A DNA stretch of 64,000 nucleotides. It comes from Apostichopus japonicus (taxonomy: Eukaryota; Echinodermata; Holothuroidea; Aspidochirotida; Stichopodidae). Positions 5,208 to 42,082 of this stretch are shown here, in pieces (position 1 is the stretch's first letter; each line of letters starts with the position of its first letter). The DNA is taken from NCBI RefSeq assembly GCF_037975245.1, contig NC_092566.1, positions 9,342,001 through 9,406,000 on the forward strand, in the 5' to 3' direction. The notes below the pieces were generated by a model that did not search any database, was not told the DNA's origin, and worked only from the letters and a program-made list of their open reading frames with translations. The translations under genes and the position numbers were made by a program.

Positions 5208-5686
5208 TCAGTGACAACCACATTTCACAGCAATAGCGTTCTTAACGTGTTGTAAAATGATGTTGTTGGATTCGTCAATATATAGAATAGCTATATGACT
5301 GAGCTCGTGCGGCACGCAACAAGCGCTTTGGACTGTCTGTGGGGATTCGATCGCCATGAAACTTGTAATAAGCGCGTGAGTCGAATAAGGAGTATCAATG
5401 TTGGCGGGGAATGGACAAGTGCCTGTACACTGGTTGGCGTTGAAGCCCTCCGGTGCTAATATCCGATGTGACCAGCCAAGCCTCTCGAAGTCTACAAACA
5501 TTCTCTCCACTCGACAAAGGTCACCCGAAGTTACGTATGGGGCCTTTATTTCCCTTTTGTCACGACGAGCGGGTCGCCCTGTTCCTTCAGACGTGGGTGA
5601 CGATGGGGTATCTACTTGGTTGAATGGAACGTTGGCATCCGCAATGAATTGTGGAAGGTCGCCCTCCCTCTCGTCGGAAAAACCGC
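5208..5686 (-). CDS. admp: admp exon 5 (furin site, mature TGF-beta domain, stop)
   Basis: Residues 287-445 and the stop. Acceptor TTTCAAACAG at 5688-5687. The whole cystine-knot domain is in this one exon, with the RDKR processing site 13 residues before its first cysteine. The intermolecular-bond cysteine is present (ACCVP), so a disulfide-linked dimer is expected. Confidence 0.96.
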
Positions 5687-8600
5687 CTGTTTGAAACACA
5701 ACAGAAAGAACTGTAAGTAATGCTCTAAATTTTGTCTAAAGGGATAATCCTAAGGGAATACTTCATTTTTGACTGGTGAAAATGAAAAAAAAAACAACTC
5801 CTGATGAAATTTGCAATAATTTCCATCGTGTCATTTTCGAGATAACAACATCTGAAGTTTAAAAACTGTTTGTACCAAAATAAAAGTGAACATGATTTCA
5901 AACCGTACATATATACGTTGGAAAAATTGTGTATATATCAAATGCAGAAAAAATATGATTCCGAAATTAGACAGTAACGACAGTATTTTACGACATCTCG
6001 AATGTTTGCATGGGCCGACAAATGGGCCGACGAATGGAATGGGCCGACGAATGGGCCGTCTAAAGTAATATACAATATATAATTTATTTCATCAACTCAT
6101 TCAACAGAAAAAAACGCTCCCAGGTAAATGACAATCAAAAATGTTTTTAATTCCGAAAAATGCAGACATACTGCATGTAAAGTCATTAGAACATTTTGAA
6201 TCATAGCAGGAACGCTACCTACATTCAAATTTTATGAAGGGTGTGAAATACAATAAATTTATTTTTTTGGTATACACTATACAGGTACCTCTCATGTACT
6301 TTTCCTTTGTTATAATCATAACCAATGTATACCGTCATGTAAAGTATTGACTGCTGATGGTCGATGATGAACACCTCCATTTCTCGATTAGGTCATAGTT
6401 ATTTTTCTATGATTACCTTGGCTAACTTAATTAAAAGTAAAAAACGGCAGTGGCGGAGCGTCCATATAGTCAGGGGGGCGAATGCCCCCCCCCCCCTGAC
6501 GGACTCAAATGGACTGCTGACGCCCTTTTCAGCTTTTTACCACATTTTACTTATTCGCTCTCATCTACTTATTGACATTTGTCACATATTGTTGGTGTAA
6601 TTTTCTGACAAAATGCTCTAACGGCGCGGTCTTGTGATGAAGCGCATGCACTTTCAACACCCATATAAACTTCAGAGTTGTCACAAATGGCGATGACACC
6701 TATTTATTCTTCGTTTATCTGCAAATTAGCAAGGCCCGGAAAGGGTCATTTCCGGCGATCTAAGGAGTATTTTGACTCGAAAAATTTCTGTACGCTCCGC
6801 GCCAACCTGTGGTGGCGCTTTACTTAGATAGTGTCGAAAGCGCCCCTACAGACCATTCTCGCCCCCTCTGACCAATACCCCTAGCTCCGCCACTGAAAAA
6901 AAGGTGTATATAATGATGTTTAGTGCTTCAAGAACTCCGAGGGAAGAGGTGGGATGGTGTGGTGTGTGTGTGTTTGGGGGAGGGGGGGGGCTATACCCAC
7001 CTTTGAAGAGTTTATCTGCCCCATTCTTAAACTCTGAGAAAAAAAGAGGTTATGTGACATACCCAAAGAGTTGTCTTGGTCCGTCTCTTCTCTCGTGAAG
7101 ATGACCAACGTTGGTTTCCGGTCAACATTTCTTAACGAATATCGAATGGCTCCATCGGGTGCAGGTTCTCCTGTAAGGTATGTTACATTGATATATAATC
7201 CCAGGTTAGATGAACTGTCGGTCAGCCACTCGTGTAAAGCTGTGAAATGAAAGGAAAATATGGTTTTCGATCACAAATGGAATATTGAGAACCAACCCCA
7301 CCACCACCCCATTAACTTCAAGCAGCTTACATTTGTGTGGTTTTCAGGCTATGTATTCCGAGGAAAGGGGTTGGAGTGCCGGGTGAGGAGAGGTACGGAT
7401 GCATGGGAGGGAGCAGGCCTGACCATAGAAGGAGTCACATGTATACTACAGACCCCGCGCCCGGTTCAATTAGGGGCTTGGGGCCCGGAAATATGCGTTA
7501 ACGAATAATGTGTAGGCTATACTTTATGAAGTAATGAAAACTTCAAAAACTGAGGGTGGCATAAGTTTTCCAATACTCGATCTGGAACTCGACGCGCCTG
7601 GTTGTGAGCATGATCACCTTCTTATGTATACAAACGGCGGTTGCTTTTTAGTAGTTTCGTAATCATGTTTTTGTTCATTTAACACATGGACTTAAGGAAC
7701 TATTAAACTATGCGAACGACAATATTAACCCAATAAGCACGTTTAATTAGTCCAACTTGGCAGTCACTGACAGCCAAATCAACTCCCAGCCGGAGTCATT
7801 TATTGAAATAGCAATAAATCGACAATAAAGGGTGTTGTCCTGCGGAATACAGATCTTTGCTTTGCAACGTATAACTAAATTTATCGAGCGAACACAACAA
7901 TGCGCGCGTTTGTATACTCAAAAATAACCTACTTATTCCTCTTTTTAGCGCATTTTATGCAGGGAAGCATACACAAAACGAGCAATTAGGATATACTTAC
8001 TTGAGTCAACTTCGAAAATTTCTCGGCCAGTTCCTCGCGATCGCACTCGCCTTTGGTCCACCAACTTTGATTTCCCCCTGTCTGTTCGTTGGTAGATTCC
8101 AACCTAAATAAAATAATAATAAAATTATATATATTGAATTGTCACGATAATACATGATTAAGACGATAAGGGAGCTTCCAAAAAAGTGTGTGTGTGGGGG
8201 GGGGGGGGCGGATGATAGAAAGCCGACGGGATTCAGGGCCCTTCCCTAATAAAAGAAAGAAACGACATTTTTGGTTGTTCCACAGGCGATTAAATAGCTT
8301 AAATTGGCAGTCTAGTACGTCCTTTGTTAGGATATTCCATATACTTTAACACTATAATGAGATAGGCTATATAGCTAAACAATTGATTATTTGATGGTCC
8401 GAAACACTTCTTTTTTGATTGATTCATAAGATACATTATAGAAGAATCCAGCAAACCACAGATTTCAAGGATGGGCTTCCCAACTTTCAAATAGGAAGAG
8501 GGATGGGGGGGGGGGTCCCTCTCATCCAATACACTAACGGGCCGCAAACTTTCAGGTCCACGACACAGGATCTTCCGTGAGGACTGAGCCGCGAACTACC

Positions 8601-41900: not shown

Positions 41901-42082
41901 TGTAACTGGGAATGCTGTCGCAAATTATAAACGCATATCGAGCAGAAAAGAACAGAAAATGATTAAAACAAAAATCTTTAATTAAAGAAAAGTAAAAAAT
42001 TAACAAAAACCATAATCTCACCGACAAATCCACAAGAAAAAATCAAAAAGATACTCCCAGGGTTTAATATTCCAGACTTCAT
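29733..42082 (-). CDS. pnhd: Pinhead-type cysteine-rich secreted protein, complete seven-exon gene
   Basis: A 336-aa secreted protein from exons 42082-42022, 36923-36678, 36049-35964, 34080-33852, 33464-33405, 31406-31279 and 29933-29733 (61+246+86+229+60+128+201 = 1011 nt; phases 1, 1, 0, 1, 1, 0 all match). Residues 1-21 form a short signal peptide. Residues 22-88 are a Ser/Thr-rich linker. The rest is cysteine-rich, built of four related modules that each end in a motif of the type (I/F)D-V/T-G-x-C: LIDTGQC (116), IDVGTCRGDC (196-205), FDVGKCIGIC (272-281) and ISIGNCVC (328-335). CxGxC is a cystine-knot hallmark. N-glycosylation sites: N138 and N263. I recognise this as Pinhead from the DVGxCxGxC modules and from its place directly upstream of an ADMP-like gene on the same strand. 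Known role (chordates): a secreted factor in dorsoventral and head patterning. The alternative is an unrelated cystine-knot protein. Confidence 0.82.
30330..30484. mobile_element. MITE-like inverted repeat element (pnhd intron 6)
   Basis: Ends TACGGTGGCTTAATAAGGAC and, reversed, TACGATGGCTTGAAAGGGAC form an inverted repeat around a short AT-rich core with three copies of an AAAATTTTGAGAT-type motif. TA at both edges would fit a Tc1/mariner-type origin; unproven. Confidence 0.5.
31279..31406 (-). CDS. pnhd: pnhd exon 6
   Basis: Residues 228-270. Acceptor CCACTGTAG, donor GTGAGA. Encodes DECVEKIERCSCTSACYR and ends in IVELR, which joins KFDVGKC of exon 7 to make a complete third module parallel to FEVQIDVGTC in exon 4. 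Confidence 0.82.
32775..33170. mobile_element. hAT-like MITE, 396 bp (pnhd intron 5)
   Basis: Perfect 8-bp target duplication ATGTGCAT (32767-32774 and 33171-33178). Ends GGCGTAGGAACC and CCTACGCCACTG are inverted. Related fragments lie at 44975-45288, 45497-45763 and 47095-47170. Confidence 0.82.
33183..33373 (-). mobile_element. SINE family 2, copy lacking the tRNA head (pnhd intron 5)
   Basis: Body and ATGT tail match the other copies, but it stops at the GAGTGACTCGA point where the tRNA-like head should start. Lies about 30 bp from the donor of pnhd exon 5, directly beside the MITE at 32775-33170. Confidence 0.72.
33405..33464 (-). CDS. pnhd: pnhd exon 5 (60-nt mini-exon)
   Basis: Residues 208-227 plus one base. 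Acceptor TAACACAG, donor GTAAGA, phase 1 in and out. Supplies NCDGCFPTETV. It is symmetrical in phase, so skipping it would remove 20 residues without a frameshift. Confidence 0.78.
33852..34080 (-). CDS. pnhd: pnhd exon 4 (Cys-rich core, CRGDC)
   Basis: Residues 132-207 plus one base. Eight cysteines (137, 143, 168, 170, 177, 201, 205 and, across the junction, 210). Acceptor CACGTACAG, donor GTAAAG. Encodes IDVGTCRGDC with an RGD tripeptide held between two cysteines. A tRNA-derived SINE ends only about 40 bp upstream of the acceptor. Confidence 0.88.
34121..34356 (-). mobile_element. SINE family 2, full copy (pnhd intron 3)
   Basis: Complete head (GGAGTGTTAGCTCAGTGG), B box, body and tail. 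Ends about 40 bp upstream of the acceptor of pnhd exon 4, so its tail is close to where the branch point should lie. Confidence 0.78.
35307..35374. repeat. AT microsatellite (pnhd intron 3)
   Basis: About 33 AT units with one TTT interruption. Confidence 0.93.
35964..36049 (-). CDS. pnhd: pnhd exon 3
   Basis: Residues 103-131. Acceptor CTCTTTGCAG, donor GTAAGT. Encodes EYLIDTGQC, the module 1 counterpart of IDVGTC. Only the phase-1 frame is open through the exon; the other two contain stops. Confidence 0.8.
36235..36631. repeat. GAT trinucleotide microsatellite (pnhd intron 2)
   Basis: About 130 GAT units with three clusters of GGTGAT variants in a regular pattern. It starts about 45 bp from the pnhd exon 2 donor, and on the minus strand is transcribed as ATC repeats. 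Confidence 0.97.
36678..36923 (-). CDS. pnhd: pnhd exon 2 (Ser/Thr-rich linker and first Cys)
   Basis: Residues 21-102. Acceptor TTTCTTTAG, donor GTGAGG. Open for 81 codons with a Ser/Thr-rich low-complexity stretch, then VCKRIQRNTFIGR, which aligns with the CAKVSLYKTFF segment of exon 4. An earlier GTATGT donor at 36698 would give phase 0 and fail to join exon 3. A long GAT microsatellite begins about 45 bp beyond the donor. Confidence 0.78.
37894..38262. mobile_element. TTAA-flanked MITE, copy 2 (pnhd intron 1)
   Basis: Same element as at 1041, same 369-bp length and high similarity throughout, TTAA at both ends. Lies in the first intron of pnhd. Confidence 0.7.
38862..39104 (-). mobile_element. 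SINE family 2, full copy (pnhd intron 1)
   Basis: Same structure as the 34121 copy with a few deletions in the head. A short partial head duplicate (ACTAAGCTAACACTCCTAG) follows it. Confidence 0.76.
39979..40165. mobile_element. hAT-like MITE, 187 bp (pnhd intron 1)
   Basis: Perfect 14-bp terminal inverted repeats CAGGCGCGTAGCCA. Flanks TTCCATGC and TTACATGC are an 8-bp target duplication with one mismatch, as expected for hAT elements. Confidence 0.8.
42022..42082 (-). CDS. pnhd: pnhd exon 1 (signal peptide)
   Basis: Twenty codons plus one base. ATG in an A-at-minus-3 context, a Lys near the N-terminus, then the hydrophobic core SIFLIFSCGFV. Donor GTGAGA in phase 1, exactly what exon 2 needs. 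It is the only upstream minus-strand segment I found combining ATG, leader, donor and phase. The 5.1 kb distance makes this the least certain exon of the model. Confidence 0.6.

What the first reader, a model, noticed from the sequence alone, without database searches (positions are those of the whole stretch)
5208..42082. An ADMP-like BMP ligand and a Pinhead gene sit head-to-tail on one strand
The sequence shows two complete secreted-factor genes in the same orientation: the Pinhead-type gene upstream, the ligand downstream, 13 kb apart, with no recognisable gene between. In chordates Admp and Pinhead are known neighbours, and Pinhead transcription has been described as repressing Admp in cis. 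If both identities hold, this window carries the same pair in an invertebrate lineage, so the arrangement would be ancient and the regulation could be tested outside chordates.
Basis: partly seen in the sequence, partly recalled or inferred. Interest (0 to 1): 0.88.

Follow-up and report, generated by a model that had tools for sequence, protein, structure and literature searches.

The report
Sea cucumber Pinhead–ADMP gene pair
A sea cucumber chromosome carries a probable Pinhead gene directly upstream of a divergent ADMP-type BMP gene, an arrangement that, as far as I recall, others have already reported in many animals, so it is a useful new example more than a surprise.

Summary
On the minus strand lie a complete BMP-class ligand gene (five coding exons, 445 aa, 16598-5208) and, 13.1 kb upstream, a complete secreted Cys-rich gene (five coding exons, 289 aa, 42082-29733). 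The genome is an echinoderm's by its mitochondrial code; size and 23 chromosomes match the published Apostichopus japonicus assembly. Sea urchins are reported to have two ADMP genes. Among the 15 TGF-beta-type genes found in this genome, two BMP-class ligands stay unassigned by my reading: the window's and one on C5. They pair in a mature-domain tree (95.6/82) but not when propeptide is added (2/43). No ADMP or Pinhead sequence could be compared, so both names rest on elimination, position and architecture. The Cys-rich gene has no other match in the genome. The ligand evolves fast and has Arg where seven references have Trp, though the genome's own BMP3-type gene lacks that Trp too. The claim that the tandem would newly be shown ancient fails: from memory, Imai et al. 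2012 report it from arthropods to vertebrates. Cis-repression is untested here. New member of a known kind, modest interest.

The parts
42022..42082 (-). Pinhead-like gene, coding exon 1: start codon and signal-peptide-like stretch
   Evidence: ATG at 42082; donor TTGTCG|GTGAGA, phase 1
36673..36923 (-). Pinhead-like gene, coding exon 2: Ser/Thr-rich linker and first Cys of the mature protein
   Evidence: acceptor TTTCTTTAG, donor GTGAG|GTAATC
33852..34080 (-). Pinhead-like gene, coding exon 3: CEC, and CxGxC motif IDVGTCRGDC
   Evidence: acceptor ACGTACAG, donor AAAAG|GTAAAG
31279..31406 (-). Pinhead-like gene, coding exon 4: GDECVEKIERCSCTSAC...
   Evidence: 3 of 4 phase-fitting candidates in the intron are versions of this exon; 0 of 22 control stretches reach 4 Cys
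29733..29933 (-). Pinhead-like gene, last coding exon: KFDVGKCIGIC ... NCVCA stop
   Evidence: acceptor TTTCTTCAG; stop TAA at 29735-29733
16599..29732 (.). 13.1 kb interval between the two genes, candidate place for shared regulatory DNA; holds a (CCCTTGC)n minisatellite at 28883-29170
   Evidence: 28 of 34 ORFs of 70 aa or more scanned, none over a Pfam cut-off; tandem array
16157..16598 (-). ADMP-type ligand gene, coding exon 1: signal peptide and start of propeptide (FMLDLY ... TIRSL)
   Evidence: ATG at 16598; donor GGAAAG|GTAGGT, phase 1
9037..9173 (-). ligand gene, coding exon 2: propeptide HFEVDTIPSTERLLRAELHLF
   Evidence: GT-AG, phase 1 in, phase 0 out
8001..8103 (-). ligand gene, coding exon 3: propeptide
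   Evidence: GT-AG, phase 0 in, phase 1 out
7063..7239 (-). ligand gene, coding exon 4: propeptide SSNLGLYINVTYL
   Evidence: GT-AG, phase 1 in and out
5208..5686 (-). ligand gene, last coding exon: furin-type site RRDKR and the whole 7-Cys mature domain, ending CGCH stop
   Evidence: PF00019 E 1e-27 on the open frame 5208-5735

Best explanation
This is the echinoderm (sea cucumber) version of the Pinhead-Admp tandem. Shown: a secreted Cys-rich gene with no other match in its genome stands directly upstream, on the same strand, of a BMP-class ligand gene with signal peptide, propeptide, furin-type site and a 7-Cys domain. Inferred: the Cys-rich gene is Pinhead and the ligand is one of two echinoderm ADMP genes. 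Inferred from work in other animals: the ligand is secreted, cleaved and signals through Smad1/5 in dorsal-ventral patterning, and Pinhead modulates it outside the cell. Because Pinhead is transcribed toward the ligand gene, its transcription could interfere with ligand enhancers lying in or downstream of Pinhead and keep the two expression domains apart.
For: Gene models with matching phases. TGF_beta and propeptide domains. First propeptide intron in the same part of the propeptide and in the same phase, 1, as in a BMP2-type gene found as contamination (against 15; that acceptor judged by eye). Mitochondrial COX1: AAA on Asn 10 of 10, AGA on Ser 4 of 6, TGA on Trp 13 of 14, ATA on Ile 14 of 23, i.e. 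the echinoderm/flatworm code; 23 large contigs, 671.58 Mb, matching A. japonicus (PMC10344927, passages). Own-genome census: 16 TGF_beta exon matches in 15 genes, read by motif as BMP2/4, BMP5-8, BMP3, Nodal, a univin-like gene and 8 GDF8-, activin- or TGF-beta-like or divergent genes, leaving the window ligand and the C5 ligand. These two pair in the mature-domain tree (SH-aLRT 95.6, UFBoot 82). Sea urchin and two hemichordates have admp1 and admp2 (PMC4600745, passages). The Cys-rich protein matches only its own five exons at E <= 1.
Against: No ADMP or Pinhead reference was compared. The ligand is about equally far (34-38%) from BMP6, BMP2, GDF5, BMP3, BMP9 and activin A. It has Arg at the Trp of the W-I-I-A-P motif that is invariant in the seven references and kept by the C5 ligand (own BMP3-type L016 has Phe there). 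With propeptide added, the pairing loses support (2/43). The C5 ligand is less diverged and may be the canonical ADMP. Deep branches of the tree are mostly weak, the family labels of the own ligands are mostly my motif reading, and the census (best candidates only, exon by exon) can miss ligands whose domain is split. Nothing here tests expression or cis-repression.
Confidence: 0.77

Rival explanations
1. The ligand is a BMP-class gene but not ADMP (for example a lineage-specific fast-evolving BMP); the C5 ligand is the only ADMP and the Cys-rich neighbour is an unrelated secreted protein.
For: Equal distance to all reference families compared and a very long branch; the C5 ligand is closer to other BMPs (51% to human BMP6, 48% to human BMP2) and keeps the motif Trp; pairing not robust.
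Against: Two unassigned BMP-class ligands in a phylum reported to have two ADMPs; a secreted Cys-rich gene without other genomic match stands directly upstream, as the known tandem predicts.
Confidence: 0.18
2. Both identities are right but the linkage is only inherited gene order; there is no cis-repression of the ligand by Pinhead transcription in this animal (compatible with the best explanation up to its last sentence).
For: 13.1 kb apart with repeats between; in zebrafish the two genes are described as repressing each other's expression, both under BMP/Smad repression, with Pinhead as a BMP-like ligand (PMC8753366 and PMC8034876, passages), which needs no cis effect.
Against: Pinhead upstream on the same strand is the orientation the cis model needs (inference); long conservation of order would suggest constraint (inference).
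Confidence: 0.45
3. The Cys-rich model is partly wrong (a missed exon or a wrong splice), or is a pseudogene.
For: No relative in Pfam or PDB; my first four-exon model also had an open frame with matching phases.
Against: The five-exon model uses the stronger donor of exon 3, all phases fit, there is no internal stop, and it restores a repeated Cys pattern (16 of 5000 shuffles score as high).
Confidence: 0.08

Closest known systems
Admp-Pinhead tandem of Ciona and other animals (Imai et al. 2012, Science 337:964; not held, recalled)
   Same: Both genes adjacent, Pinhead upstream of the ligand on the same strand (orientation in Ciona recalled), nothing recognisable between
   Different: Echinoderm host; 13.1 kb gap; both genes split into five coding exons; ligand strongly diverged; cis effect untested
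Sea urchin admp1 and admp2 (Lapraz et al. 2015, PMC4600745, passages)
   Same: Two ADMP-type BMP-class ligands expected; two candidates found (window and C5)
   Different: Which of the two the window ligand corresponds to is unresolved; no sequence from that paper was available
Zebrafish Pinhead and Admp (Yan et al. 2019 as told in PMC8753366 and PMC8034876, passages)
   Same: The same two gene kinds, in dorsal-ventral patterning
   Different: There Pinhead is described as a BMP-like ligand with reciprocal repression; nothing of this is tested here
BMP2/4 genes (L002 of this genome; BMP2-type gene in L001)
   Same: Propeptide plus 7-Cys mature domain; for L001, first propeptide intron in the same part and phase
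   Different: Only 36-39% identity in the mature domain; a clear BMP2/4 gene lies elsewhere, on C8

Membership tests
TGF-beta superfamily, BMP class | TGF-beta propeptide and 7-Cys mature domain with CxGxC and terminal CxC | tested here: met
   PF00019 6.4e-27, PF00688 1.1e-16; best PDB matches BMP6 and BMP7
ADMP | groups with known ADMPs in a family tree | not testable with these tools
   no ADMP sequence reachable; protein database switched off
ADMP | not a member of BMP2/4, BMP5-8, BMP3, Nodal or univin | tested here: inconclusive
   own genes read as each of these lie elsewhere; own BMP2/4 and BMP3 group with the human ones (87.3/87 and 98/98) and the window ligand with none of them, but other deep branches are weak and labels for Nodal and univin are motif reading only
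ADMP | pairs with the other leftover BMP-class ligand, as expected for echinoderm admp1/admp2 | tested here: inconclusive
   95.6/82 on the mature domain, 2/43 with propeptide
Pinhead | sequence similarity to known Pinhead proteins | not testable with these tools
   no Pinhead sequence reachable; no Pfam model hits
Pinhead | secreted, Cys-rich, immediately upstream of an Admp-type gene on the same strand | tested here: met
   signal peptide judged by eye; the Admp side is itself an inference
Pinhead | single-copy in the genome | tested here: met
   only the five exons of this gene match at E <= 1; a much diverged copy could be missed
Pinhead-Admp cis-repression | mutually exclusive expression lost when Pinhead transcription is stopped in cis | not tested
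   no expression data

The most novel reading that the evidence does not exclude
In this echinoderm the ligand that stayed beside Pinhead is the fast-evolving one of two ADMP paralogues and has lost a Trp of the receptor-contact motif, while the better conserved paralogue lies on another chromosome. The Pinhead-linked ligand may then have shifted from receptor signalling to binding Pinhead, Chordin or other BMPs, so that the tandem regulates a modulator and not a standard ligand.
Probability: 0.11. Interest if true: 0.55.

Novelty: new member of a known kind. Interest (0 to 1): 0.34.

Why it matters
If the identities hold, the Pinhead-Admp tandem is kept in a sea cucumber with a chromosome-scale genome. 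Sea urchins have two ADMP genes with opposite expression (PMC4600745, passages), so asking which ADMP sits beside Pinhead in echinoderms would tell which is the positional counterpart of chordate Admp. It would also make the cis-repression model testable in an ambulacrarian embryo. The idea that the arrangement is ancient is not new.

Tried and rejected
Pfam found nothing for the Cys-rich protein but sub-threshold matches (Dmrt1; ComS for the last exon alone). The first four-exon Pinhead model, asked at E up to 10, matched only WD-repeat proteins (best E 0.0023); the five-exon model was asked at 1e-3 only and matched nothing. The four-exon model was dropped because it used a weaker donor and left two CxGxC motifs side by side. 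Scan of viral contigs for BMP relatives: 46 pattern matches, none a relative. Scan of genome contigs: 53 pattern matches, 1 relative, a BMP2-type exon (88% identical to human BMP2; 'fish' is my guess) on a contig filed as Bacteroides, used only as a BMP2 reference. AlphaFold on the ligand's last exon alone gave mean pLDDT 33, useless, so no fold search was made.

Ten paper searches were made. Seven named pinhead (two searches listed 25 of 110 and 12 of 42 papers), the others pnhd (31), the title of Imai et al. (38) and the sea cucumber genome (107). No listed paper was about the tandem in echinoderms, but no search paired Pinhead with echinoderms, and the key paper and two Pinhead papers are not held; so I do not claim it is unpublished. 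In PMC4571091, PMC6710290 and PMC9579920 the passages concern only one-eyed pinhead, another gene. PMC4640076 and PMC6177115 (passages) cite Imai et al. without describing the tandem. I considered a recalled ADMP consensus as a lead but did not use it as a test.

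Full report
Observation. I rebuilt both genes from the minus strand. The ligand has five coding exons, 16598-16157, 9173-9037, 8103-8001, 7239-7063 and 5686-5208, giving 445 aa with GT-AG introns and matching phases. The spliced protein carries TGFb_propeptide (E 1.1e-16) and TGF_beta (6.4e-27); its best solved relatives are BMP6 and BMP7. The Cys-rich gene has five coding exons, 42082-42022, 36923-36673, 34080-33852, 31406-31279 and 29933-29733, giving 289 aa with 20 Cys. 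Exon 4 was found in a second pass: it uses the stronger donor of exon 3, fits phase 1 to phase 0, and restores a repeated Cys pattern. The repeat alignment scores 48, and 16 of 5000 shuffles reach that, with or without Cys held in place, so it is suggestive. A scan of that intron gave four phase-fitting open candidates, three of them versions of this exon; 0 of 22 overlapping control stretches gave one with four or more Cys.

Interval. 13,134 bases separate the genes. Of 34 ORFs of 70 aa or more listed there, 28 were scanned and none reached a Pfam cut-off (best E 0.018). Six ORFs made by the (CCCTTGC)n minisatellite at 28883-29170 were left out.

Organism. The window is C6:9342001-9406000 of a 671,581,487-base genome in 35 contigs. 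Contig C35 (16,099 bases) is mitochondrial: its COX1 matches human COX1 at 77.2% with the echinoderm/flatworm code (table 9; table 14 the same), 75.2% with tables 24 and 33, and 72.6% with the invertebrate code. AAA falls on Asn in 10 of 10 aligned codons, AGA on Ser in 4 of 6, TGA on Trp in 13 of 14, ATA on Ile in 14 of 23. There are 23 large contigs of 18.20-46.04 Mb. The published A. japonicus assembly is 671.60 Mb, 34 scaffolds, 23 chromosomes of 18.21-46.02 Mb (PMC10344927, passages). I take the window to be this sea cucumber or a very near relative. A flatworm shares the code but does not fit that match (inference).

What the ligand is. In the mature domain it is 34-38% identical to BMP6, BMP2, the L001 BMP2-type gene, GDF5, BMP3, BMP9 and activin A, with a very long branch. 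It departs from residues invariant in those seven references at Asp12 (Arg), Trp18 (Arg), Ser76 (Ala), Lys89 (Gln) and Val96 (Ala); the L001 fragment does not reach position 96. The own BMP3-type gene L016 has Phe at the Trp18 place, so the loss is not unique. The first propeptide intron lies in the same part of the propeptide and in the same phase (1) as in L001 (acceptor of L001 judged by eye), and the propeptides align (score 86; best of 2000 shuffles 54). In its own genome 16 TGF_beta exon matches were found, two of them in one gene, so 15 genes; the search scores best candidates exon by exon and can miss split domains. By motif I read BMP2/4 (L002), a univin-like gene 40 kb from it (L003), Nodal (L004), BMP5-8 (L005), GDF8/11-like (L007), BMP3 (L016), and seven activin- or TGF-beta-like or divergent genes (L008 to L012, L014, L015). 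Two BMP-class ligands remain: the window's (L006) and one on C5 (L013 with L023). Of the 15 own genes, 9 were used in the mature-domain tree and 6 divergent ones were left out. In that tree the two leftovers pair (95.6/82), while several deep branches are weak. A second tree of second-half propeptide plus mature domain, with 5 of the 15 own genes, the L001 gene and human BMP7, gives the pair no support (2/43). Lapraz et al. describe two admp genes in sea urchin and in two hemichordates, admp1 grouping with protostome and deuterostome admps (PMC4600745, passages). So by elimination the window ligand is most likely ADMP1 or ADMP2; which one is open. Its neighbour argues for the positional counterpart of chordate Admp; its divergence argues the other way.

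What the Cys-rich gene is. No Pfam family over a cut-off and no PDB match at 1e-3. Only its own five exons match in the genome at E <= 1, so nothing like it was found near the C5 ligand. A signal-peptide-like start, Cys-richness and position fit what I recall of Pinhead, but the name is not tested by sequence. The CxGxC of exons 3 and 5 and the terminal CxC look like cystine-knot elements (inference).

Mechanism. In Ciona, as I recall from Imai et al. 2012 (not held), Pinhead antagonises Admp and its transcription disturbs the Admp enhancer. Reviews seen in passages describe Pinhead as an ADMP regulator (PMC11226491) and, in zebrafish, as a BMP-like ligand that with Admp promotes Chordin degradation, each repressing the other's expression (PMC8753366, PMC8034876). 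The order here, Pinhead upstream and reading toward the ligand, allows the cis model; nothing here tests it.

Novelty. The ADMP tree of Lapraz et al. names annelids, molluscs, arthropods, flatworms, an acoel and a placozoan (PMC4600745, figure legend passage), and admp is in all lophotrochozoans sampled in the Lingula study except certain annelids (PMC13121700, section 7). The tandem from arthropods to vertebrates is recalled from the 2012 abstract. The finding is therefore a new, well-modelled member of a known arrangement, in an echinoderm. The unexpected feature is that the Pinhead-linked ligand is the more diverged of two candidates and lacks a motif Trp.

Noticed in passing
window 50900-59450, minus strand: A third gene on the same strand upstream of Pinhead: SLC9B/NHA-type sodium/proton exchanger exons (open frames beginning at 59453, 57668, 56643, 55463, 54962, 52234, 51060). 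Of five of these frames scanned, two match Na_H_Exchanger below the cut-off (E 7.2e-5, 6.6e-4) and three match nothing. The name is my reading.
   Followed up: partly
L059 5457-6107 and 9221-9673, minus (C6:9327457-9331673): A Pitx-like homeobox gene (homeodomain E 2.1e-14, OAR motif 9e-4; Pitx is my reading) lies on the same strand about 15.5 kb downstream of the ligand, so the order is SLC9B, Pinhead, ligand, Pitx; genes between ligand and Pitx were not searched for exhaustively.
   Followed up: partly
G000 C8:14687626-14727715 (L003, L002): A univin-like ligand and BMP2/4 (names by motif) lie 40 kb apart on the same strand.
   Followed up: no
G000 C8:2.11-2.25 M and C2:8.66-8.81 M: Pairs of divergent TGF-beta-type genes about 140-145 kb apart (L010 with L014, L008 with L011).
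   Followed up: no
L001 740-1687 (DKPL01000047.1): A contig filed as a Bacteroides metagenome assembly holds a vertebrate-like BMP2 exon beside bacterial-looking genes: contamination or a chimera.
   Followed up: no
window 14807-14881 (-) and 15325-15398 (+): Two tRNA-like sequences in inverted orientation, overlapping a pair of 144-base inverted repeats, inside ligand intron 1; possibly a SINE.
   Followed up: no
window 49892-50664, 53807-54559, 55739-56067, 62491-62735: Long tandem arrays with units of 25, 151, 29 and 61 bases.
   Followed up: no
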